A stretch of DNA of 60,000 nucleotides from Patulibacter minatonensis DSM 18081 (GTDB taxonomy: Bacteria; Actinomycetota; Thermoleophilia; Solirubrobacterales; Solirubrobacteraceae), in assembly GCF_000519325.1 (NCBI RefSeq), contig NZ_KI912613.1, positions 4,287,229 to 4,347,228 on the forward strand, written 5' to 3'. A program made the translations under genes and the position numbers. The notes beneath the pieces are model-generated. The model was not told where the DNA came from. It did not search any database and worked only from the letters and a program-made list of their open reading frames with translations. This document shows, piece by piece, positions 1,800 to 57,921 of this stretch; position 1 is the first letter of the stretch; the number at the start of each line of letters is the position of its first letter.

Positions 1800-1810
1800 C
1801 CCAGACCACG

Positions 1811-1863
1811 CGCGTGGTGCCCGGACCGCTCGCCCTACGGGCTCCCGACCCGGGCACCACGCG
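1811..1863. terminator. 14-bp inverted repeat after the transposase
   Basis: CGCGTGGTGCCCGG (1811-1824) pairs perfectly with CCGGGCACCACGCG (1850-1863) across a 25-base loop, 11 bases after the transposase stop. It could be a terminator or a structural part of the IS end. There is no T-tract, so the role is uncertain. Confidence 0.5.
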
Positions 1864-1934
1864 ACCCACGACCTCCGACCCAGAGCCGCTCACGGATCAC
1901 GAAACCGAGCTACACCACAAAACGCGACTTGACT

Positions 1935-1942
1935 CGGCACGC
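1935..1942. repeat. target-site duplication, right
   Basis: Exact second copy of CGGCACGC, abutting the right end of the element. Confidence 0.85.
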
Positions 1943-1958
1943 ATCGTGGAGGTGTCAC

Positions 1959-2015
1959 CCCGGAGAACGTGACGATCCCCCGGTCCGACGGTCGGGGGTC
2001 GTCACGTTCTCCGGG
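1959..2015. repeat. long palindrome, 22-bp arms
   Basis: Arms 1959-1980 and 1994-2015 pair with a single mismatch around a 13-base loop. The arm core is GAACGTGACGA followed by a C run. The palindrome lies just outside the right target duplication of the IS element, between it and the 3' end of the minus-strand CobW gene. It resembles REP-type intergenic palindromes and could also act as a terminator. Confidence 0.7.
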
Positions 2016-2078
2016 CCGGGACGAGCATGACGTGACAACCCCCTCTGTCGCCCGTGGGGGCTCGTCACGTTGTCCCGG
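2014..2078. repeat. second palindrome of the same family
   Basis: ACGTGACAACCCCC (2030-2043) pairs with the G-run and TCGTCACGT stretch at 2056-2070, and an outer CCGGGAC/GTCCCGG pair extends the stem. It shares the ACGTGACRA-CCCC core with the palindrome at 1959-2015, so the two look like tandem members of one repeat family. Confidence 0.6.
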
Positions 2079-2154
2079 CCCGCGTCGCGTGCCCGAGCGG
2101 CGCGCCGCCCTGCCCGGACCGCCCGCGCATCGACCGCGTCGTCGAGCCCGTCCC

Positions 2155-3420
2155 CTACGCCGCCCGCGCGTCGACCGCGTCGTCGTGCCCGTGGTGGTGC
2201 ATCGCGTCGGTGCCCCAGCGGGGCCACGGGTCCGGGAGCGCGCGGCCCCACCGCGGGCCGCGGGCGAGCTCCGCGTCGGTCAGCAGCGCCGCGTCGAGCC
2301 GGGCGATCAGGGCGTCGCGGTCGAGCCCCTGGCCGATGAAGACCAGCTCCTGCCGGCGGTCGCCGTAGTCCGGGTGCCAGTCCTCGGCCAGGCGCTCGCG
2401 CATCTCGTCGGGCCACGCGGTCTCGGGCTGCGTCGCCCACCAGGTGCCCACGGCGCGGAGGTTCAGGATCGGCCCGGCGGTCGACCACTCGCCGACGAGC
2501 GCCGGCCGGCTGGCGAGCCAGAAGAAGCCCTTCGACCGCACGACGCCCGGCCACGCCTCGTGGACCGCGTCCCAGAGGCGCTGCGGGTGGAACGGGCGGC
2601 GCTGCCGGAAGACGAAGCTGCCGATCCCGTACTCCTCGGTCTCGGGCTCCTCCTGCCCGCGGAGGACCTGGAGCCAGCCGGGGTGCTCGGAGGCCTCGTC
2701 GAAGTCGAAGCGCCCGGTGTCCAGGAGCTCGCCGAGCGGCACCTCGCCGTGCTCGGCGCGGACGATCCGCGCGCCGCGGTTCAGCTGCCGGACGACGTGT
2801 TCGGTGCGCTGGAGCCGCTCCGCATCGACGAGGTCGCACTTGCTGAGCACGACGAGGTCCGCGAACTCGACCTGGTCGATCAGGAGATCGACCACCGTGC
2901 GCTCATCGTCCTCGCCGAGGCTCTCGCCCCGAGAGGCGATGTCGTCCGTGGAGCCGATGTCGTCGACGAACCGCGCGGCGTCGACGACGGTGACCATCGT
3001 GTCCAGGCGCGCGACGTCGCCCAGGCAGCGGCCGTCCTCGTCCTCGAAGGTGAACGTCTCGGCGACCGGCAGCGGCTCGCTGATCCCGGTCGACTCGATG
3101 ACCAGCGCGTCGAAGCGCCCCTGCTCGGCGAGCCGACCGACCTCGACGAGGAGGTCCTCCCGCAGCGTGCAGCAGATGCAGCCGTTGCTCATCTCCACGA
3201 GCTGCTCGTCGACCCGCGAGAGGGCGCTCTCCCCCGTGCCCGCGCGGTCCACGAGCTCGGCGTCGATGTTCACCTCGCTCATGTCGTTGACGATCACCGC
3301 CACGCGGCGACCCTCGCGGTTCTTCAGGAGCTGGTTCAGGAGGGTGGTCTTCCCGGCGCCGAGGAAGCCGGAGAGGACGGTGACGGGCAGCCGGCCGTCG
3401 TCGGTGAGGGGTGCGGTCAT
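2155..3420 (-). CDS. CobW/COG0523-type zinc metallochaperone GTPase
   Basis: This is a 421-residue G3E-family GTPase. Walker A is GFLGAGKTT at residues 18-26. The metal-binding GCICC motif follows (Cys81, 83, 84), then the NKxD-like SKCDLV. The C-terminal CobW domain ends in a His-rich tail ([10 protein letters not shown]). Family members of this kind hand zinc to client proteins when zinc is scarce. That assignment is supported by the Fur/Zur-type palindrome immediately upstream. The ATG at 3420 has a good ribosome site (GGAGGG). Cobalt or iron service cannot be excluded, but no cobalamin genes are near. Confidence 0.9.
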
Positions 3421-8285: not shown

Positions 8286-8350
8286 CGGATTTCGATCCTT
8301 GGTCTTCGGAAGGCTGTGGGCCGACGGCACGCCGTCGCCCCTGGTCGGAG

Positions 8351-8424
8351 AACCGGGTGTCACGTGTCCTTCACGGTCCGACGCGGTGCGGACCCGAGAG
8401 ACACGGGACGGGGCCCGGTCCCCT
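8351..8424 (-). repeat. stop-codon-adjacent GC-rich repeat, diverged copy
   Basis: Read on the minus strand, this begins just after the stop of the gene at 8426-9742 with GGGGACCGGGCCCCGTCCCG and contains CTCGGGTCCG, CGCGTCGGACC and CACCCGG. These match in order the units at 18639-18882, 37408-37633 and 45691-45780. It fills the space before the acyl-CoA dehydrogenase at 7074-8285 and may form a terminator-like structure. Confidence 0.6.
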
Positions 8425-8425
8425 G

Positions 8426-9742
8426 TCAGACGAGAAGGGCCCCTTCCATGACGCCGGCGGCCCGCAGGTCGCGGTACCAGCGCTCGACCGGGTGGTCCTT
8501 CACGTAGCCCGCGCCGCCGAGCATCTGGACGGCCTGCGAGCCGATCTCCATGCCCTTGTCGGCGGTGAGCTTCCGGGCCAGCGCGGCCTCGCGGGCGAAG
8601 CTCTTGCCCATGTCCGCGCGGCTCGCCGCGCGGTAGGTCGTCAGCCGGAGGCTCTCGAGGTCGATCGCCATGTTCGAGACGGTGAACGCGACGCCCTGGC
8701 GGTGCGAGACGGGCTCGCCGAACGCCTCGCGCTCGTTGACGTACGGGATGACGTGGTCGAGCGCCGCCTGCGCGGTGCCGGTGGCCAGCGCGGCCCAGGC
8801 GATGCGGCCCAGGCGGATCGCCTCGGCGTAGACGTCGGGGTCGCCGCCGCCCAGCAGCGCGGAGGCCGGGACGCGGACGTCCTTCAGCACCAGGCGCCCG
8901 GTGGCCGCGGCGCGCAGACCGATCGCGGGCTCGGGCTCGGTCAGGACGCCGGCGGTCTTCGACTCGACGAGGAACAGCGCCGGATGGTCCGCGAGGTCGG
9001 CGGCGACGACGAACAGCTCGCCGGTCCCGACGTGCGGCACGAGGGACTTCACGCCGGAGAGCACGTAGTCCTCGCCGTCGCGGGTCGCGGTCGTCCGCAG
9101 CGCGAACGGGTCGAACAGCGGCCGCGGCTCCTGGACGGCGAGCGCGGCGGTCGGGACGTCCTCGCCGACGAACTCGGGCAGGTAGGTCGCCTGCTGGTCG
9201 GCGTCGCCCCAGAGGCCCAGCGCGGTCGATACCGCGGCCGGCGCCAGGACGGCGTAGGCGAGGCCGAGGTCGCCGTGCGCGAGCGCCTCGGCGAGCAGCA
9301 CGGACGTGACGGCCGAGCGCTCCTCGACGGCGCCGCCGGCGGCCTCGGGCACGCCGAGCAGCGTGGTCCCGATCTCGGTGCTCTTCAGGAGCAGGCCCTC
9401 GGGCATCGCGCAGGCGGTGTCGGCGGCCTCGGCGGCGGGACGCAGCTCGGTCGCGGCGAAGTCTCGCGCGGCCGACTGGATCATCTCCTGCTCGTCGTCG
9501 GGCGTCAGGTCGAACAGCCCGTTGCCGGTGCGTGCGGGCTTCAGGCGCGACGCCGAGCCCCCGCCGGAGCGCTTGGCGAACGTGCGCCCCACGGTGCCCG
9601 CCGCCTGGAAGCCGCGGTGCGCACCGATGCGCACGACGCGCTCGCTGGCGCTCCGGGCTCCCAGGCGGTCGATCAGCTCGGAGCCCGCGAAGCGGTTCAG
9701 CGCGCGGAGGCCCAGGGCCATTCCTCGGTCGGTCAGGTTCAT
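8426..9742 (-). CDS. acyl-CoA dehydrogenase family protein
   Basis: This is a 438-residue second acyl-CoA dehydrogenase, only distantly like its neighbour. It has a longer N-terminal part (MNLTDRGMALGLRALNRFAG), a beta domain with an LVPHVGTGELFVVAADL stretch, and a C-terminal helical domain with SQAVQMLGGAGYVKDHPVER, the usual flavin-contact region. The adjacent pair suggests a fatty acid or aromatic acyl-CoA degradation set. The start at 9742 is the first ATG giving family-like sequence; the frame is open further upstream. An inverted repeat upstream (9810-9831) may be its operator. Confidence 0.88.
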   Translation of the reverse strand: MNLTDRGMALGLRALNRFAGSELIDRLGARSASERVVRIGAHRGFQAAGTVGRTFAKRSGGGSASRLKPARTGNGLFDLTPDDEQEMIQSAARDFAATELRPAAEAADTACAMPEGLLLKSTEIGTTLLGVPEAAGGAVEERSAVTSVLLAEALAHGDLGLAYAVLAPAAVSTALGLWGDADQQATYLPEFVGEDVPTAALAVQEPRPLFDPFALRTTATRDGEDYVLSGVKSLVPHVGTGELFVVAADLADHPALFLVESKTAGVLTEPEPAIGLRAAATGRLVLKDVRVPASALLGGGDPDVYAEAIRLGRIAWAALATGTAQAALDHVIPYVNEREAFGEPVSHRQGVAFTVSNMAIDLESLRLTTYRAASRADMGKSFAREAALARKLTADKGMEIGSQAVQMLGGAGYVKDHPVERWYRDLRAAGVMEGALLV

Positions 9743-16683: not shown

Positions 16684-17477
16684 CCGACCGCGTCCGTCCG
16701 GGCGACGAGGTCCGCGATCACGCGGGAGAGCTGCCCACCCTGCCAGGCGATCGGCGACTTCCCCTCGTCCTCGACGACGAGCGCGCTGTCGGGCAGCGCC
16801 TCGGCGTAGCGCTCGGCCGTCGCGAGCGGGTGCCCCGGATCGGCCTCGTCGCGGTCGCCGACGACGACGGTCGGCACGCGGATCGCGGCGAGGTCGTCGA
16901 GGCTCGCGTACGGGGCGCTCCGCGGCACGGCACGGACGGCGGCGGCGACCGCGCCGGGGTGCTCGTGGACGGAGAGCCGCTGGTGCATGACCTTGCGGAC
17001 GGTGTCCTGCCACGCCTCCGGGATCCGGTCGAAGCGGTACGCGTCGACGAACCCGTCGGCACCGCCCTGCTCGAGGCCGTCCGCGAGCCGGTCCCACCCC
17101 GCGAGGGTGCGCTCGTCGGTCTCGTTCCCCGGCTCGTACGCGGGGGTCACGACGACGACGCCGGAGACGAGCTCTGGGCGGTGGAGCGCCACCCGCAGCG
17201 CCGTGTGCGCGCCCATCGACGCCCCGACGAGCACCGCACGGGGCATGTCGTGGGCGGCCAGCGTCGCGACGAGGTCCTCGGCGAGGTCCTCGTAGCGGTA
17301 GGCCGCCGGGTCGTCGGCGGGGTCGGACGCCCCGTGCCCCCGCGCGTCGTACGTGAGGACGCGGTGGCCCGCCCGCTCCAGGTGACGGCTGCCCATCACG
17401 ACGTAGCGGTGGCTGGCGGTCAGCCCGTGGAGGAGGACGACCGGGGGTCCGTCCCCTGCGACTTCGGCGTGGAGCAT
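16680..17477 (-). CDS. alpha/beta hydrolase
   Basis: This is a 265-residue hydrolase. Features are the oxyanion stretch VVLLHGLTASHRY, the nucleophile elbow LVGASMGAHTAL, YDARGHGAS after strand 4, and the acidic residue in VVVGDRDEADPG. Where a catalytic His would be expected (EDEG-H-SP) the sequence reads EDEGKSPIAWQGGQLS, so the usual triad His is not obvious. The substrate is unknown. It is coupled to the downstream thioesterase-like gene, which hints at ester or thioester metabolism. I start it at the ATG at 17477; the frame is open upstream but overlaps dinB. Confidence 0.85.
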   Translation of the reverse strand: MLHAEVAGDGPPVVLLHGLTASHRYVVMGSRHLERAGHRVLTYDARGHGASDPADDPAAYRYEDLAEDLVATLAAHDMPRAVLVGASMGAHTALRVALHRPELVSGVVVVTPAYEPGNETDERTLAGWDRLADGLEQGGADGFVDAYRFDRIPEAWQDTVRKVMHQRLSVHEHPGAVAAAVRAVPRSAPYASLDDLAAIRVPTVVVGDRDEADPGHPLATAERYAEALPDSALVVEDEGKSPIAWQGGQLSRVIADLVARTDAVG

Positions 17478-17526
17478 CTCCGGAAGGTCTACCAGCGGGC
17501 CCGCCGCGACCCCGACCGGCCGGTGG

Positions 17527-18606
17527 TCATCCGGTCGACAGCGGCAGCACGAGCTGCACCCCGGGCCCGTCCTCGAGCTCGAGCGACGCCATCCGGACCC
17601 CGAGCAGCCGCACGGGGAGCGCCGGGGCGTACTCGCGGAGCATCCCGATCGCGGCGTCCGCGAGGACCTCCTCGTCGACGACGGGGACGGGGAACGTCCG
17701 GGAGCGCGTGACCGTCGTGAAGTCGCGCAGCCGGACCTTGATGCCGACCGTGCGCCCACGGCGGCCCTGCTTCTCCAGCGCCTCGAAGAGCTTGATCGAC
17801 AGACGCCGGAGCTCGGCCTCCTGCTCCTCCGCGTCGGAGAGGTCGACGGAGAACGTGGTCTCGCGGCTCTCCGAGACGGGCTCGCGGACGGGCTCGACGG
17901 GCGCGTCGTCGTCGAAGCGGCAGCGCCGCCACAGCCACGGTCCGGTGCGGGGGCCGTACCAGTCCGAGAGCGTCGCCTCGTCGACCTTCGAGAGGGCGCG
18001 GATCGTCGCCACGCCGCGGCGGGCGAGGTCGTCGGTCGTCTTCGGTCCGATGCCGCCGAGGATGCCGGGCGAGGCGTCAGCCCAGCGGAGCCAGGCGTCC
18101 TTCCGGGAGAGCACGCAGAAGCCACGGGGCTTCTCGGCGTCGGAGGCGAGCTTCGCCACGAGCTTGTTCGGCCCGATGCCGAGCGAGACGTGCAGCTCGG
18201 TCTCCCGCAGAATCCGCGCCTGCAGCCGGCGCATCGCGCTCTTGGGCATCGCCATGGCGCTCAGGTCCATGTAGGCCTCGTCGACGCTGACCTGCTCGAC
18301 GATCTCGACCTCGTCGCGGACGATGCCCATGACGCCGGCCGAGGCCTCGCGGTACGCGTCGAGGTCGGGCGGGACGATGATCGCCTGCGGGCAGCGGTTC
18401 TTGGCCGTCGCGAGCGGCATCGCGGACCCCACGCCGAACTTCCGCGCCTCGTAGGTCGCCGTCGTGACGACCGAGCGCGGGCCGTCGTGGGCGACGATCA
18501 CGGCCTTGCCGCGGAGCTCGGGGCGCCGCAGCAGCTCGACGGAGGCGAAGAACGCGTCGCAGTCCAGGTGCCCGATGCAGCGAACGGGTGTTCCCTCCGA
18601 CCCCAC
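17527..18606 (-). CDS. dinB: DNA polymerase IV (Y-family)
   Basis: This is a 359-residue error-prone translesion polymerase. The palm has HLDCDAFFASVE (Asp15) and SVDEAYMDL (Asp109, Glu110). A helix-hairpin-helix thumb follows (GIGPKTTDDLARRGVATI), then a little-finger domain. The C-terminus VQLVLPLSTG resembles a sliding-clamp-binding peptide (QLxLPL). It starts with GTG at 18606; TAGTCT six bases upstream suggests a leaderless mRNA. No LexA box is evident. Confidence 0.95.
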   Translation of the reverse strand: MGSEGTPVRCIGHLDCDAFFASVELLRRPELRGKAVIVAHDGPRSVVTTATYEARKFGVGSAMPLATAKNRCPQAIIVPPDLDAYREASAGVMGIVRDEVEIVEQVSVDEAYMDLSAMAMPKSAMRRLQARILRETELHVSLGIGPNKLVAKLASDAEKPRGFCVLSRKDAWLRWADASPGILGGIGPKTTDDLARRGVATIRALSKVDEATLSDWYGPRTGPWLWRRCRFDDDAPVEPVREPVSESRETTFSVDLSDAEEQEAELRRLSIKLFEALEKQGRRGRTVGIKVRLRDFTTVTRSRTFPVPVVDEEVLADAAIGMLREYAPALPVRLLGVRMASLELEDGPGVQLVLPLSTG

Positions 18607-18612
18607 CGCACC

Positions 18613-18618
18613 AGACTA
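18613..18618 (-). promoter_or_regulatory. -10 element of dinB, leaderless arrangement
   Basis: On the minus strand TAGTCT is followed by six bases and then the GTG start of dinB, with no ribosome-binding site between. Confidence 0.5.
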
Positions 18619-18638
18619 CGCCGACGGACGGCGGGATC

Positions 18639-18882
18639 GTCCGGGGCGGGGCCCGGTCCCTTCCGGGTGCCCCGGACCCTGCCGCAGTCCTGCACGGCGG
18701 TCCCCGGGACGTCCGGGGCGGGGCCCGGTCCCTTCCGGGTGCCCCGGACCCTGCCGCAGTCCTCCGCGGCGGTCCCCGGACGTCCGGGGCGGGGCCCGGT
18801 CCCTTCCGGGTGCCCCGGACCCTGCCGCAGTCCTGCACGGCGGTCCCCGGGACGTCCGGGGCGGGGCCCGGTCCCCTTCCCT
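18639..18882 (-). repeat. 3.4 tandem copies of a 71-72 bp GC-rich unit
   Basis: Units begin at 18639, 18711, 18782 and 18854 (the last partial) and are almost identical. The array runs from the stop of the RlpA-type gene (18881) to just before dinB. Each unit, read on the minus strand, contains CCCCGGACGTCCGGGG (a perfect palindrome), GGACTGCGGC, and TCCGGGGCACCCGGA (a 6-bp stem with a three-base loop). The same series of elements occurs after three other stop codons in this window. Confidence 0.9.
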
Positions 18883-19645
18883 ATCGGTCGACCATCACGT
18901 TGCCCGTCGAGCCGAAGCCCAGGCGCGACTTCGTGGCCGACGTGAGGTCGAACTCGCGACCGGCGACGTACGGGCCGCGGTCGACGACGCGGGCCTCGAC
19001 CTGGCGGTCGCCCAGGCGGAGCGTCAGGCGGGTGCCGCAGGGCAGCGACTTGTGGGCGACGCCGACGGTACCGGGGCTCAGGTGGCCGCCGCAGGCGAGC
19101 GCGCTGCCGTAGAGGCCGGGCCCGAAGTAGGACGCGTACGCGCGGCGGAAGCCGTGGACGGGCTCGACGCGCTCGATGTCGCCCTTGCCGCGCGAGTTGG
19201 ACACGATGCGCAGGCGGACGGACCGGTCGCCCATCGACGAGATCTTCGTGCTGACGCGGAAGCGCCCGTCGCGACCGACGGCGTCACGGGTGATGGCGCG
19301 CCACTTCGAGCCGCGGTGCTCCTCGAGCCGGACGTGCTGTCCGGCCGAGTGGTGCCGGACGCGGCCGGCGTAGACGGCGGTCCGTCCGACGAGGCCGGAG
19401 CCCCGCTCGGTGGTCGCGCGGATCGCGGGCGTCCGGCGCTTCGCCGGAACGGCGGCGGGGGTGGCCACGGCTGCGGTCACGGGGGTCTCGCGGGCGGCCG
19501 TCGTCTGCGACGGTGCGGCCCCGGAGCTCGGGGTCGGGGTCCCGCCCGGCGCGGAGGCCATGGCTGGGACGGCTGCGGTCAGGGCCAGCGCCGCACCGGC
19601 CGCGAGTGCGGCACGGGTCGGCGTGACGACGGCGTCACGGGTCAC
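18881..19645 (-). CDS. RlpA-type double-psi beta-barrel cell-wall protein
   Basis: This is a 254-residue secreted protein. It has a signal peptide (about 1-31), a low-complexity Ala/Thr/Pro linker, and a beta-rich middle domain (about 80-150). The C-terminal double-psi beta-barrel (about 165-254) has YFGPGLYGSALACGGHLSP, AHKSLPCGTRLTL, VVDRGPYVAGREFDLT, and the RlpA-like Asp and His. Proteins of this type bind or cleave peptidoglycan. The GTG start at 19645 has AGGAG upstream and sits below a c-di-AMP riboswitch, which fits a role in wall remodelling. Confidence 0.85.
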   Translation of the reverse strand: MTRDAVVTPTRAALAAGAALALTAAVPAMASAPGGTPTPSSGAAPSQTTAARETPVTAAVATPAAVPAKRRTPAIRATTERGSGLVGRTAVYAGRVRHHSAGQHVRLEEHRGSKWRAITRDAVGRDGRFRVSTKISSMGDRSVRLRIVSNSRGKGDIERVEPVHGFRRAYASYFGPGLYGSALACGGHLSPGTVGVAHKSLPCGTRLTLRLGDRQVEARVVDRGPYVAGREFDLTSATKSRLGFGSTGNVMVDR

Positions 19646-19654
19646 GTTGGGTTC

Positions 19655-19850
19655 TCCTCTTCGAGAAGACGCCTACGGAGTTAGCTGACGGGCTCGCGAG
19701 CTCCGGACGGACCGCACATGGGTGCGGGACGGCCGGAGGGCGCTACGGACGACTCGGCGTCCGATTCGCCCCGTGCCGCGACGCTCGAGGGAGAGCGGTG
19801 CGGCGGTGGGTCCCCCGTTCGGAGCGTGCGGGCACGCCCCGACTCGGCAT
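19655..19850 (-). ncRNA. c-di-AMP riboswitch (ydaO/yuaA type)
   Basis: The leader of the RlpA-type gene carries the conserved ydaO blocks in the right order on the minus strand: CGGGGGACCCACC (about 19817-19805), GGGGCGAATCGG (19772-19761), and the hallmark GAGCCCGTCAGCTAAC followed by TCCGTAGGCGTC (about 19695-19668). Class members usually switch off expression when c-di-AMP is bound and often control wall hydrolases in actinobacteria. The exact ends are approximate. The region 19851-19958 upstream probably holds the promoter. Confidence 0.85.
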
Positions 19851-19958
19851 CGGTGAAGGTGTCGTGAACCTTAAGGGGCGGATCCGGGTCTCACCCGTGC
19901 GATGCCGCACACCCGCCAGGCGAGCGTCGGGGCGCCACGACCTGCGAAGAATCCCTGC

Positions 19959-20525
19959 TCAGAGCAGGGACGAGATCATCGTCATGACCGTCGCGGCGGC
20001 GAGCTCGGAGCCCTCGAGCTCCGCCCGCATCCGCGCCAGCCCGAGCCGGAGGCGGCCCTTGACCGTGCCGAGCGGCAGCCCGGAGCGGTCGGCGATCTGG
20101 TTGGCCGTGAGGTCGCCCCAGCAGGCGAGCGCGATGGCCTCCCGCTGCGGGACGGGGAGCGCGGACATGGCGCGCATCAGCGCGGCGCGAGCCTCGTTGC
20201 GCTCGGCCTCGCTCACGACGACGTCGGACGGCAGCGGCGGCGGCGCGGCCGCGAGGCGCTCGGCGGCCCTGCCGGCGGCCTGCCCGGAGCGCAGGATGTC
20301 CAGCGCGCGGGACCGGGCGACCATCCGCACGTACGCGCCGAGCGGGCCGCGTGTCGGATCGAAGAGCCGGGGGTCCCGCCAGAGCCGAACGAAGACGTCG
20401 TGGACGACGTCCTCGACGTCCGAGCGGCGCCCGACCGGCGCCAGGACGGCCGCCGCGGCACCCGCTGCAGCGGGTGCGTGCTCGGCGTAGGCGCGCGCGA
20501 AGTCGTCGGGGTCTCGGAGGTCCAT
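19959..20525 (-). CDS. ECF-type RNA polymerase sigma factor
   Basis: This is a 188-residue sigma factor with regions 2 and 4 only. Region 2 has DVEDVVHDVFVRLWRDP and YVRMVARSRALDILRS. Region 4 has LPVPQREAIALACWGD and ANQIADRSGLPLGTVKGRLR, the SigK/RpoE-like helix-turn-helix. No anti-sigma gene follows in the same direction, which is unusual for this group. An in-frame GTG five codons upstream (VHPAP) is a possible alternative start. A 15-bp palindrome lies just ahead. Confidence 0.92.
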   Translation of the reverse strand: MDLRDPDDFARAYAEHAPAAAGAAAAVLAPVGRRSDVEDVVHDVFVRLWRDPRLFDPTRGPLGAYVRMVARSRALDILRSGQAAGRAAERLAAAPPPLPSDVVVSEAERNEARAALMRAMSALPVPQREAIALACWGDLTANQIADRSGLPLGTVKGRLRLGLARMRAELEGSELAAATVMTMISSLL

Positions 20526-37350: not shown

Positions 37351-37407
37351 GACGCCGACACCCTTTCAGGTGCGGCCGTCCGCGGGTGCCCCGAGGCCGG
37401 TCGCCCG

Positions 37408-37633
37408 ACCCTTCCGGGTGCTCCGAGCCCCGCCGCGGTCCGACGCGCCCGCGACCCGAGACGCTCGGGGCGGGACCCGGACCCATCCGGGTGCTCCGGG
37501 CCCGGCCGCAGTCCGACGCGCCCGCGACCCGAGACGCTCGGGGCGGGACCCGGACCCATCCGGGTGCTCCGGGCCCGGCCGCAGTCCGACGCGCCCTTGC
37601 CCGAGAAGCCCGGAGTGGGACCCGGCCCCTCCC
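37408..37633 (-). repeat. three 73-bp tandem GC-rich repeats after cdsA
   Basis: Units begin at 37408, 37481 and 37554. The first two spacings are exactly 73 bp, and the third unit is diverged toward cdsA. On the minus strand each shows CCCGAGCGTCTCGGG (a stem), CGCGTCGGACTGCGGC and GAGCACCCGGATGGG. This is the same order of elements as at 18639-18882 and 45691-45780. The array starts next to the cdsA stop codon. Confidence 0.9.
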
Positions 37634-38935
37634 TCAGGCCATGCCCATGGCCAGCCACACGTAGTAGCCGGCCACGATGCCGAACATCGCGGCGTCGAGG
37701 CGGTCGAGGACGCCGCCGTGGACGCCGAAGAGACCGCCGGCGTCCTTCGTCCCGGCGTCGCGCTTGAGGAAGCTCTCGAAGAGGTCGCCCAGCGGCGCGA
37801 CGACGGCGACGGCGAGCCCGATCAGGAGGGCGTCGGTGCCGCTCAGCCAGTCCTGGTAGAGCCCGGCGAACCAGACGGCCGCGACGGCGACGACGATGCC
37901 GATCAGGAGGCCCTCGATCGTCTTGTTCGGCGAGACGCGCGGCCAGAGCTTGCGGTTGCCGAACAGGCGTCCGCCGAGGTAGGCGCCGGTGTCGCCGAGG
38001 AACACGCCGATCAGGACGTCGACGACGATCCCCGCCCCGTGCTCGCTCTCGCGGAGCAGGATGGCGTGTCCGAGCGCGAGGCCGATCCATCCGATGCCGA
38101 GCATCGTCACCGCGACCCCGGGCATGCTGCCCTTCGGGTGCGACAGGGCCACGGAGAGGAAGACGATCGGGACCATCGCCACGAACGCGGTGAGCATCGG
38201 TTCGCGCGAGCCGTCGCCGAGGGCGGCGGCGACGATGATCGCGGTGATGCCGAGACCGGTGGCGAAGAGCGACGGGCGCGTCTTCGCGAACATGCGGGTG
38301 AGCTCCCACGCGCCGACGAGACCGAACGCGGCGATGCCGACGGCGAAGACGGGACCGCCGGCCGCGACGAGCAGCACGGCGACGACGGCGGCCGGGACCG
38401 CGACGAGGACGCGGGCGCCGAGGTCGCTGCCGCCGCCGCGGTTCGACGGCGAGCGGACGGTCTCGATGGCGTCCTCGAACCGCTCGAGAGCCTCGATCTC
38501 CCCCGCGACGTCGTCGCGGGACGCGCGGGCGGGACGCTCCTCGACCTCCGAGACGCGTCGGCGTGCGCGGCGGTCGCGGTCCTCGATCCGGACGTCGTAG
38601 GTGCCCGAGTCGTCGGGCAGCGGCTCGCCGGCGCGCGGGCGCCGGCGGCGCGGGAGCGGCTCGACCGGGTCGTACGTGCCGCTGATCGTGCCGCGCATCC
38701 GGCCACCGTCCCGGGTGCCGGTGCGGTCGTCGCGTGACCCCGTCCGGTCGTCGCGCGAGTCGGTCCGGTCGTCGCGGGAGCCGGTGCCGCGGTCCGACGG
38801 CTCGAACGTGCCGAAGTCCAGCTCGAAGCGCGCCTCGCGGCGTCGGCCGCGGGGCGGGACCCTCCTGGGGGCGCGCTCGCGTTCGTCGTCCAGGTCGTCG
38901 AAGTCGTCGTCGGCGGGCCGCCGCGGGATCGGCAT
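37634..38935 (-). CDS. cdsA: phosphatidate cytidylyltransferase
   Basis: This is a 433-residue enzyme that makes CDP-diacylglycerol for phospholipids. The C-terminal 270 residues are the multi-helix membrane enzyme, ending in the signature SPNKTIEGLLIG and KRDAGTKDAGGLFGVHGGVLDRLD. The first 155 or so residues are a hydrophilic, Arg/Asp-rich disordered extension with three or four SRDDRTG-type heptad repeats, encoded by 21-bp DNA repeats at about 38721-38790. That extension is not part of the family. Start and uppS stop share a base (TGATG). Confidence 0.93.
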   Translation of the reverse strand: MPIPRRPADDDFDDLDDERERAPRRVPPRGRRREARFELDFGTFEPSDRGTGSRDDRTDSRDDRTGSRDDRTGTRDGGRMRGTISGTYDPVEPLPRRRRPRAGEPLPDDSGTYDVRIEDRDRRARRRVSEVEERPARASRDDVAGEIEALERFEDAIETVRSPSNRGGGSDLGARVLVAVPAAVVAVLLVAAGGPVFAVGIAAFGLVGAWELTRMFAKTRPSLFATGLGITAIIVAAALGDGSREPMLTAFVAMVPIVFLSVALSHPKGSMPGVAVTMLGIGWIGLALGHAILLRESEHGAGIVVDVLIGVFLGDTGAYLGGRLFGNRKLWPRVSPNKTIEGLLIGIVVAVAAVWFAGLYQDWLSGTDALLIGLAVAVVAPLGDLFESFLKRDAGTKDAGGLFGVHGGVLDRLDAAMFGIVAGYYVWLAMGMA

Positions 38936-45690: not shown

Positions 45691-45780
45691 CGGGGCCCCC
45701 GCCCCTCCGGGTGGCCCGTGCCACGCCGCAGTCCGACACCGTTCGGACGCGAGACGCACGGGTCGGGGCCCGGCCCACTC
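45691..45780 (-). repeat. GC-rich repeat unit directly after sepF
   Basis: On the minus strand this starts right after the sepF stop: GGGCCGGGCCCCGACCCGTG, then CGTCTCGCGTCC, GTGTCGGACTGCGGC and CCACCCGGAGGGG. It is a single unit of the family found as arrays at 18639-18882 and 37408-37633. Confidence 0.8.
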
Positions 45781-45781
45781 C

Positions 45782-46354
45782 CTAGGACTGGTTGAAGAAG
45801 CCCTTCTCGATCAGCTGCGCGCGTTCCTCCGCGGAGATCGAGACGTTGGCGGGCGTGAGCATGAAGACCTTGTCGGCGATGCGCTGCATCCCGCCGTCCA
45901 TGGCGTAGGTCAGGCCGCTGGCGAAGTCGATCAGCCGCTTGGAGAGGTCCGAGTCGGACGTCTGCAGGTTGATGACGACGGGGATGCCGTCCTTGAAGCG
46001 GTCGGCGATCTGCTGGGCGTCGTTGAACGACTTCGGCAGGACGAGGTGGACCCGGACGTCGCCGCCGGGGCCCGCGGCGCTGCGGGACGACGAGCCGCCG
46101 ACCGGGCGCAGGTGGGCGCCGCCGACGCGGGAGGATCCGCCGTCGTCGTCGGAGAAGATGTCGTCGAACTCCTCGCGCCGGCGTCGGGCGCGGTCGATCC
46201 TGCGCACGGGTGTGGGCTCCCTCACGGGTTCACGAGCACGTTCACGACGGTCGTCGTACTCCGGTTCATCGTCGTAGGTGTCGTCGTACGGATCGCGCTC
46301 CTCTGCGAGAGCGAAGTACACGAGCACCTTGTGCCAAGCGTCGCGGAAGGCCAT
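45782..46354 (-). CDS. sepF: cell division protein SepF
   Basis: This is a 190-residue FtsZ-anchoring protein. It has an N-terminal amphipathic membrane-binding helix (AFRDAWHKVLVYFALAEE), a charged linker rich in Arg/Glu, and a C-terminal SepF core (VHLVLPKSFNDAQQIADRF, PVVINLQTSDSDLSKRLIDF, GMQRIADKVFMLTP). It recruits FtsZ to the membrane in bacteria lacking FtsA. No ftsZ gene is in the window. Confidence 0.94.
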   Translation of the reverse strand: MAFRDAWHKVLVYFALAEERDPYDDTYDDEPEYDDRRERAREPVREPTPVRRIDRARRRREEFDDIFSDDDGGSSRVGGAHLRPVGGSSSRSAAGPGGDVRVHLVLPKSFNDAQQIADRFKDGIPVVINLQTSDSDLSKRLIDFASGLTYAMDGGMQRIADKVFMLTPANVSISAEERAQLIEKGFFNQS

Positions 46355-56377: not shown

Positions 56378-56479
56378 CTCCTTGGATCATCCCGGGTCGC
56401 GGACGCGCGCGACGTGCGCCCCGTCCGCGGCCCCCGGGGAGCGGGGTTCGTGCCCGTCGGCGGGTGCCACGTGCCCCGC

Positions 56480-56608
56480 CGACGTCCGGCGCGACCCACC
56501 CGGGGCAGCACGGGGACGGGCCCGCGCGCACGGCGGGGTGCCCGCGCCCCGTCGACGACGGACGAGGCCCTGCCCGAGAGGCCCGGGCGGGGCACCGGCG
56601 TCGTCCTC
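56480..56608 (-). repeat. possible diverged stop-adjacent repeat after murA
   Basis: On the minus strand, starting a few bases after the murA stop, GCCCGGGCCTCTCGGGC forms a stem and a CGTCCGTCGTCGACGGGGC stretch follows with GGGCACCCCG. Order and spacing resemble the repeat family, but identity is low. It may instead be an ordinary terminator region. Confidence 0.35.
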
Positions 56609-56610
56609 CG

Positions 56611-57921
56611 TCAGCCGACGGCGACCTCGGCGTCCTCGGGCACGCGCTCGATCTGCGCGCCGAGGGAGCGCAGGCGCTCGTCGATGGCCTCGTAGCCGCG
56701 ATCGATCTGGTCGATGTTGTGGATCGTGCTGCGCCCGTCGGCGCAGAGCGCGGCGATCAGGAGCGCCATGCCGGCGCGGATGTCCGGCGACGTCATGCGC
56801 TCGCCGTGCAGCTCGCAGGGCCCGGAGACGATCGCGCGGTGCGGGTCGCAGAGCGTGATGTCCGCGCCCATGCCGACGAGCTTGTCCGTGAAGACCAGGC
56901 GGTTCTCGAACATCCACTCGTGGATGAGCACGGAGCCGGTCGCCTGGGTGGCGAGCGCGACGGCGATCGACGTGAGGTCGGCCGGGAAGGCCGGCCAGGG
57001 ACCGTCCTGCACCTTCATCTTGTGCTCGCCCACGTCGCGGGCGGTCCGGAGGTCCTGGCCGCCGGGGACGAGCACCGTGGTGCCCTCGAGCTCCGACTGC
57101 AGGCCGAGCTTGCCGAAGACGAGGCGGATCATCCGCAGGTCGTCGGGGGCGACGTCCGTGATCCGGACCTCGCCGCCGGTCACGCCGGCCAGCGCCATGA
57201 AGGAGCCGATCTCGATGTGATCCGGACCGACGGTGTGGTCGCAGCCCTGGAGCTCGGCCTGCCCCTGGACGCGCAGGACGTTCGAGCCGATCCCGTCGAT
57301 CGTCGCGCCCATGCTCACGAGCATCCGCGCGAGGTCCTGGACGTGGGGCTCGCAGGCGGCGTTGCCGATGACGGTGGAGCCCGGGGTCAGCGCCGCGGCG
57401 AGCAGGGCGTTCTCGGTCGCCATCACGGACGGCTCGTCCATGAAGATCTCGCCGGCGACGAGCCCGCCCTTCGGCGCGACCATCTCGATGTCGCGTCCGA
57501 GCTCGAGCTCGGCGCCGAGCGCCCGGAAGGCGTCGAGGTGCGGATCGAGACGCCGGCGCCCGATGACGTCGCCACCCGGCGGCGGCATGGTGCAGCGTCC
57601 GAACCGGGCGAGCAGCGGGCCGGCGAGCAGGAACGAGGCGCGAATCCGCTCCGCGTCCTCGCGACGGAGCCCGTCCTCCGCGCGGAGCGCCCCGGCGTTC
57701 AGGCGGACGGCGTGCTCGTCGAGCCAGTCGACGGTCACGCCCAGGCCCTCGAGCAGGTTGATCATGGACGCCACGTCGCGGATGCGCGGGACGTTGCGGA
57801 CGACGACGTCCTCGCTGGTCAGGACCGACGCGGCGAGGATCGGCAGGGCGCCGTTCTTGTTTCCTGCGGGGCGGACGGTGCCCGAGAGGGGCCGACCGCC
57901 GTCGATGACGAACTTCTCCAT
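56611..57921 (-). CDS. murA: UDP-N-acetylglucosamine 1-carboxyvinyltransferase
   Basis: This is a 436-residue enzyme for the first committed step of peptidoglycan synthesis, adding enolpyruvate to UDP-GlcNAc. PAGNKNGALPILAASVLTSE holds the N-terminal Lys and Asn of the site. The catalytic Cys is kept in GRCTMPPPGGDVIGRRRLDP. The C-terminal half has NIDQIDRGYEAIDERLRSLG. Because Cys is present the enzyme should be fosfomycin-sensitive (inference from the family). Confidence 0.95.
   Translation of the reverse strand: MEKFVIDGGRPLSGTVRPAGNKNGALPILAASVLTSEDVVVRNVPRIRDVASMINLLEGLGVTVDWLDEHAVRLNAGALRAEDGLRREDAERIRASFLLAGPLLARFGRCTMPPPGGDVIGRRRLDPHLDAFRALGAELELGRDIEMVAPKGGLVAGEIFMDEPSVMATENALLAAALTPGSTVIGNAACEPHVQDLARMLVSMGATIDGIGSNVLRVQGQAELQGCDHTVGPDHIEIGSFMALAGVTGGEVRITDVAPDDLRMIRLVFGKLGLQSELEGTTVLVPGGQDLRTARDVGEHKMKVQDGPWPAFPADLTSIAVALATQATGSVLIHEWMFENRLVFTDKLVGMGADITLCDPHRAIVSGPCELHGERMTSPDIRAGMALLIAALCADGRSTIHNIDQIDRGYEAIDERLRSLGAQIERVPEDAEVAVG

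What the first reader, a model, noticed from the sequence alone, without database searches (positions are those of the whole stretch)
18639..18882. Tandem 72-bp intergenic repeat hugging a stop codon
There are 3.4 near-identical units with a GGACTGCGGC core and two stems, CCCCGGACGTCCGGGG and TCCGGG-GCA-CCCGGA. Across the window the family sits only between co-directional minus-strand genes, starting 0-10 bases after the upstream stop, and always in the same orientation to transcription. That points to an RNA-level role such as termination, 3'-end protection or attenuation, or to a stop-codon-targeting mobile repeat. I know of no described family with this form.
Basis: partly seen in the sequence, partly recalled or inferred. 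Interest (0 to 1): 0.7.

Follow-up and report, generated by a model that had tools for sequence, protein, structure and literature searches.

The report
REP-like hairpin repeat after stop codons
A group of Patulibacter bacteria carries a 72-base mobile hairpin repeat that sits, almost always in one direction, a few bases after the end of genes, where it probably serves as the hairpin that closes the messenger RNA; it resembles known REP repeats but has an unusual build and no known mobilising enzyme.

Summary
The repeat is real. The window array (18632-18880, minus strand) is one of 58 sites (72 units) in this 5.5-Mb Patulibacter genome; five sites lie in the window. In this genome 56 of 58 sites begin 1-22 nt (median 9) after a same-strand stop codon, with co-directional or convergent neighbours. 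About 100 aligned units support one long hairpin with strong compensatory changes (117 double changes against 35 in shuffles), repeated in a second alignment. The family occurs only in a sub-clade of Patulibacter. It is mobile: single units interrupt kdpA and thiE in frame (+75 and +72 nt) where six orthologues each lack them. No RAYT/Y1 transposase exists in eight genomes. Element-free gene ends carry equally stable hairpins in the same place, so the element most likely takes the slot of the ordinary 3'-end hairpin (terminator-like without a T tract, or 3' protector). Best filed as a new, unusual REP-like family: placement and in-frame insertions match described REPs; unit size, head-to-tail arrays, missing GTAG tag and missing RAYT do not. 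RNA-level function is inferred, not shown.

The parts
18656..18878 (-). Three 72-nt units of the array in the finding: 18799-18878, 18728-18806, 18656-18735 (model coordinates, adjoining units overlap by the modelled flanks)
18632..18660 (-). Partial fourth copy: the 5' arm (A) only, closing the array
18881..19645 (-). Upstream gene whose stop precedes the array; RlpA-like (DPBB_1 domain)
17527..18606 (-). Downstream gene, DNA polymerase IV (DinB)-like; identification from its sequence, orthologues found in 7 relatives
8346..8425 (-). Single unit directly after the stop of an acyl-CoA dehydrogenase gene (8426-9742)
37407..37632 (-). Array of three units after the stop of a CTP_transf_1 (CdsA-like) gene (37634-38935)
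45700..45780 (-). Single unit after the stop of a sepF gene (45782-46354); the orthologous site has three units in G001
56453..56604 (-). Two diverged units after the stop of an EPSP-synthase-family gene (56611-57921); one unit at the same site in G007

Best explanation
It is a dispersed, non-autonomous mobile palindromic repeat of about 72 nt, REP-like in behaviour, restricted to a sub-clade of Patulibacter. SHOWN: each unit can fold into one asymmetric hairpin: outer helix of 5 bp (S-CGGG with CCCG-S), a conserved internal loop (CCCCR opposite CA), inner helix of 8 bp (CCCCGAGC with GCTCGGGG), and an apical part of about 40 nt. Units are inserted singly (net +72 or +75 nt), and arrays differ in head-to-tail copy number between species. 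In the window's genome nearly all sit 1-22 nt behind a stop codon, in one orientation. INFERRED: at that place the transcribed hairpin replaces the ordinary GC-rich 3'-end hairpin of the gene, helping RNA polymerase to stop without a T tract and/or protecting the mRNA 3' end, so that insertions there are tolerated or favoured while others are mostly removed. UNKNOWN: the enzyme that moves it, and whether placement comes from targeting or from selection.
For: 58 sites in G000, 56 stop-adjacent, 33 of 34 tandem-gene copies in the sense of transcription. Covariation 117 against 34.9 double-changed cells, score 0.202 against 0.062, and repeated in a second alignment. In-frame insertions of one unit in kdpA and thiE against six orthologues each without it. 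Unit number at the dinB site: 3, 4, 2, solo hairpin, none, none in six congeners. Element-free gene ends fold as stably right after the stop (-30.1 and -30.3 kcal/mol) as element ends (-31.6), operon-internal stops do not (-22.1; p = 2e-12). An array directly behind tRNA-Leu fits 'end of a gene' rather than 'stop codon'. Clade restriction.
Against: No transcript data. No T tract behind the hairpin. G-U pairs are rare among the alternative pairs (about 10 of some 127 cells), which would also fit DNA-level upkeep of the palindrome. P. americanus has 15 of 43 copies elsewhere. MFE of single units is not always beyond shuffles (z from -3.1 to +0.8).
Confidence: 0.6

Rival explanations
1. Purely selfish mobile DNA: an unidentified enzyme, perhaps acting on folded single strands, inserts the element next to existing 3'-end hairpins or transcription-related DNA structure. 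This gives the orientation and distance bias, and the element has no host function.
For: Insertions inside kdpA and thiE and between divergent genes; few G-U pairs; off-site copies are frequent in P. americanus, whose copies are more alike (nearest-neighbour identity 0.85 against 0.78 in G000).
Against: Near-strict orientation and distance in G000 and G007 without a known targeting enzyme; no Y1 transposase; G007 copies are also fairly young (0.84) yet strictly placed, which in turn argues for targeting rather than selection.
Confidence: 0.25
2. Translation-level control: a hairpin within 15 nt of the stop codon stalls the ribosome at termination, as reported for E. coli REPs, lowering expression of the upstream gene.
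For: 54 of the 55 measured G000 sites have the outer stem 1-15 nt behind the stop; REPs within 15 nt of stops are reported to stall ribosomes (cited in PMC12306157).
Against: An array directly behind a tRNA gene; stable hairpins are general at gene ends in this genome whether or not the element is present, so nothing specific to this element is needed.
Confidence: 0.1
3. Ordinary terminators that look alike by convergence in a 73% GC genome, not a repeat family.
For: GC-rich hairpins behind stops are general in this genome.
Against: Conserved unpaired positions (for example CCCC opposite CA, 92-100%), a 72-nt unit, tandem arrays, absence from all but five of 121 family genomes, and clean insertions in coding sequence.
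Confidence: 0.03

Closest known systems
REP elements / BIMEs, GTAG super-family (Di Nocera et al. 2013, PMC3733652)
   Same: Dispersed palindromic repeats lying mostly between co-directional and convergent genes close to the 3' end of the upstream gene; clusters; some in-frame copies inside genes.
   Different: Unit about 72 nt with a 5/2 internal loop instead of 20-40 bp; no terminal GTAG; no RAYT/Y1 transposase; arrays head-to-tail in one orientation, whereas head-tail dimers are rare in described REPs; no opposed dimers seen.
CGTC-tagged REPs and Rickettsia palindromic elements (PMC3733652)
   Same: No dedicated transposase; insertions in frame in coding genes; 3'-end placement; the unit holds a conserved CGTC (columns 25-28 of A2).
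   Different: The CGTC is internal to the inserted unit, not a terminal tag; stem and loop sizes differ; arranged head-to-tail, not as head-head dimers.
Intrinsic terminators of high-GC bacteria
   Same: Stable GC-rich hairpin right behind the stop codon, same slot and stability as element-free gene ends.
   Different: Repeat family with conserved unpaired bases, tandem arrays and mobility; no T tract.
MITEs (ERIC, RUP, NEMIS and others)
   Same: Short non-autonomous dispersed elements that fold and lie near genes.
   Different: No terminal inverted repeats of an identified insertion sequence, no clear target duplication at the two junctions examined, shorter than most.
Integron attC sites
   Same: Folded-strand palindromes located right after the stop of a gene (own knowledge).
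   Different: No GTT/AAC core boxes in the consensus; dispersed over the chromosome, also between convergent genes.

Membership tests
REP (GTAG super-family) | 20-40 bp palindrome | tested here: not met
   Unit and net insertion are 72-75 nt
REP (GTAG super-family) | Terminal GTAG tag | tested here: not met
   No conserved GTAG in the consensus of 101 units
REP (GTAG super-family) | RAYT (Y1_Tnp) gene in the genome | tested here: not met
   PF01797 in 0 of 8 genus genomes; controls ring in E. coli and others
REP (GTAG super-family) | Extragenic, near 3' ends of genes, between tandem or convergent genes | tested here: met
   56/58, 32/35 and 28/43 sites in three genomes
CGTC-tagged REP / RPE | Terminal unpaired CGTC with an 8-9 bp stem and 4-5 nt loop | tested here: not met
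   CGTC is conserved but internal; apical part is about 40 nt
CGTC-tagged REP / RPE | In-frame insertion in coding genes | tested here: met
   kdpA in G007 and thiE in G004, each against six orthologues without it
MITE | Terminal inverted repeats matching an insertion sequence, with target duplication | tested here: inconclusive
   No clear target duplication at two junctions; no search for a parent insertion sequence was made
Canonical Rho-independent terminator | GC-rich hairpin followed by a T tract | tested here: not met
   Longest T run behind element stops averages 1.5; no terminator-like site in 17000-20000
Transcription terminator (functional sense) | Transcripts end at the element | not testable with these tools
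   No transcript data available
Integron attC | GTTRRRY / RYYYAAC core boxes | tested here: not met
   Absent from the per-column consensus

The most novel reading that the evidence does not exclude
A mobile terminator: a transposable 72-nt hairpin, without any Y1 transposase in its host, that is placed by an unknown mechanism sensing the end of a transcription unit, in one orientation behind genes, where it becomes the gene's working 3'-end hairpin and multiplies in tandem.
Probability: 0.2. Interest if true: 0.75.

Novelty: new variant of a known kind. Interest (0 to 1): 0.42.

Why it matters
It adds a REP-like family with strong covariation, clade restriction and demonstrated insertions in Actinomycetota, a phylum for which the main survey of tagged REPs (PMC3733652) lists no tagged families. 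It is well suited to ask whether such repeats reach gene ends by targeting or by selection, since related species range from almost strict placement (56/58) to loose placement (28/43). It offers natural present/absent pairs (dinB, sepF, an acyl-CoA dehydrogenase gene) for testing what a 3' hairpin does to a transcript. What moves REP-like repeats in genomes without RAYTs is an open question, and a cultured species, P. americanus, would let one address it.

Tried and rejected
Rfam: no RNA family at the array. RAYT/Y1 transposase: none in eight genomes. Carriage on plasmids or viruses: no match in PLSDB or IMG/VR contigs. Canonical terminator: no T tract. attC: core boxes absent. A stop-codon-only rule: contradicted by the tRNA-Leu site. 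A partial 5' arm behind the last unit as a special feature of convergent pairs: seen at 9 of 22 convergent and 12 of 34 co-directional sites in G000, so not specific. Literature search for a Patulibacter palindromic repeat: nothing.

Full report
Observation. The array is real and at the stated place: 18632-18880, period 72, 3.4 copies, 95% matches. On the minus strand it starts directly behind the TAG of an RlpA-like gene at 18881-19645 and ends before a DinB-like gene. A covariance model built from 30 units finds four more sites in the window: 8346-8425, 37407-37632 (three units), 45700-45780 and 56453-56604 (two units), all on the minus strand and behind minus-strand stops.

Host. The window lies in a single-contig genome of 5,521,807 bases, 73% GC. 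A relative of the same genus, G004, has contigs whose lengths equal those of Patulibacter americanus DSM 16676, and G007 has contig lengths equal to those of a Patulibacter MAG.

Distribution. There are 72 units at 58 sites in this genome. Five genus members (G000, G001, G002, G004, G007) carry the family; G003, G005 and G006 have no strong match. Among 121 genomes of the family only these five match. An exact pattern scan of about 85,000 prokaryotic species hits three genomes, two named Patulibacter and one MAG labelled only Actinomycetota. There are no hits in viral contigs or plasmids.

Placement. I called genes with a codon-usage model trained on the window and tabulated every site. In G000, 55 sites follow a called same-strand stop, with the outer stem starting 1-22 nt behind it (median 9; 54 of 55 within 15 nt), and one more (L091) has a long uncalled ORF ending there: 56 of 58. 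The next gene is co-directional at 33 called sites and convergent at 22. In tandem gene pairs 33 of 34 copies point the same way as the genes (p about 4e-9). G007 gives 32 of 35. P. americanus gives 28 of 43; its 15 exceptions include reversed copies, copies between divergent genes, a copy inside thiE, a copy that overlaps the end of a DegV-like gene, an array directly behind tRNA-Leu, and two sites at contig ends where the upstream gene cannot be seen.

Structure. The supported fold is one asymmetric hairpin per unit: outer helix 8-12/76-80 and inner helix 18-25/66-73 of alignment A2. Of 1510 cells 94.0% pair; 117 cells have both sides changed against 34.9 in shuffles; the covariation score is 0.202 against 0.062, and slid controls lie at 0.013-0.041. 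A second alignment, mainly from P. americanus, repeats this (68 against 21.8; 0.210 against 0.059). Both alignments were fitted to the model, which favours its structure, but swaps such as 8-80 (GC 48, CG 43) and 23-68 (AU 52, UA 24, GC 11) are hard to produce by that bias. Several unpaired positions are near-invariant (CCCC opposite CA; GTC and CGGG after the inner helix), so something beyond pairing constrains the unit, or copies are young. G-U pairs are few (about 10 of some 127 alternative standard pairs), so DNA-level upkeep of the palindrome, by folding of single strands or template switching between arms, remains possible; covariation alone does not prove an RNA role.

Mobility. In G007 a unit lies inside kdpA: six orthologues lack it and the reading frame stays open (net +75 nt). 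In P. americanus a unit lies antisense inside thiE: six orthologues lack it (net +72 nt). At the dinB site there are 3 units in G000, 4 in G002 and 2 in G004, a solo hairpin in G007 and nothing similar in G001 and G003. The sepF site has one unit in G000, three in G001 and a remnant-like stretch in G007; the acyl-CoA dehydrogenase site is filled in G000 and G004 and empty in G007 and G001. The repeat is therefore gained and lost, and tandem number changes. No Y1_Tnp domain, the hallmark of RAYT enzymes, occurs in any of the eight genomes, while control genomes ring.

What it does there. In G000, gene ends without an element but with a real downstream gap, or facing a convergent gene, fold as stably in the first 60 nt after the stop (-30.1 and -30.3 kcal/mol) as those with an element (-31.6), whereas operon-internal stops do not (-22.1; p = 2e-12 for elements, 1.5e-7 for element-free ends). 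Neither kind is followed by a T tract. The simplest reading is that the element occupies the slot of the ordinary 3'-end hairpin and takes over its job. The array behind tRNA-Leu argues that the rule is 'end of a gene' rather than 'stop codon'. Whether the job is termination or 3' protection cannot be decided from sequence.

Comparison. Di Nocera et al. (PMC3733652) describe REPs as lying mostly between co-directional and convergent genes, near the 3' end of the upstream gene or of both convergent genes, with in-frame intragenic copies, and describe CGTC REPs, to which some Rickettsia palindromic elements belong, as lacking a transposase. REPs within 15 nt of stops are reported to stall ribosomes in E. 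coli (cited in PMC12306157). The present family works like these. It fails defining tests of GTAG REPs (size, tag, RAYT) and of CGTC REPs (terminal tag, stem and loop form). I therefore call it a new variant of a known kind, not a member of either super-family.

Limits. Searches score only the best candidates, so copy numbers are lower bounds and site sharing between species is underestimated. The gene caller is home-made. The comparison of nearest-neighbour identity (0.78 in G000, 0.85 in G004, 0.84 in G007) fits recent spread with later clearing of badly placed copies, but G007 has similar identity with strict placement, so it is only a hint.

Noticed in passing
L204 (G004:C1:497658-497737) and L250 (G007:C168:25128-25208): Elements inside coding sequence: antisense in thiE and sense in kdpA, both in frame and absent from orthologues, adding about 24-25 residues to each protein.
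   Followed up: yes
L190 (G007 dinB locus): A solo hairpin CGGGCCCCCCGAGCGTCTCGGGGTGGCCCG stands where relatives have two to four full units, as if an array had collapsed to a short palindrome.
   Followed up: partly
L209 (G004:C12:36850-37024): A two-unit array starts directly behind a tRNA-Leu gene, in the sense of its transcription.
   Followed up: yes
L213 (G004:C2:3456-3535): A unit overlaps the end of a DegV-like gene, so that the reading frame ends at a TAG within the element's apical loop.
   Followed up: partly
L218, L224, L228 (P. americanus contigs C2 end, C4 start, C5 start): Contig ends of the P. americanus draft assembly coincide with element arrays, so the repeat probably breaks assemblies.
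   Followed up: no
window 1800-2154: Behind the gene at 2155-3420 lies another set of strong inverted repeats (around GACAACGTGACGAGCCCCC and GAACGTGACGACCCCC) unrelated in sequence to this family.
   Followed up: no
G004 (P. americanus), several loci: A second sub-family with CCCCGGCCCGTGC opposite CACGGTCCACCCG; it includes many of the copies that are not at gene ends.
   Followed up: partly
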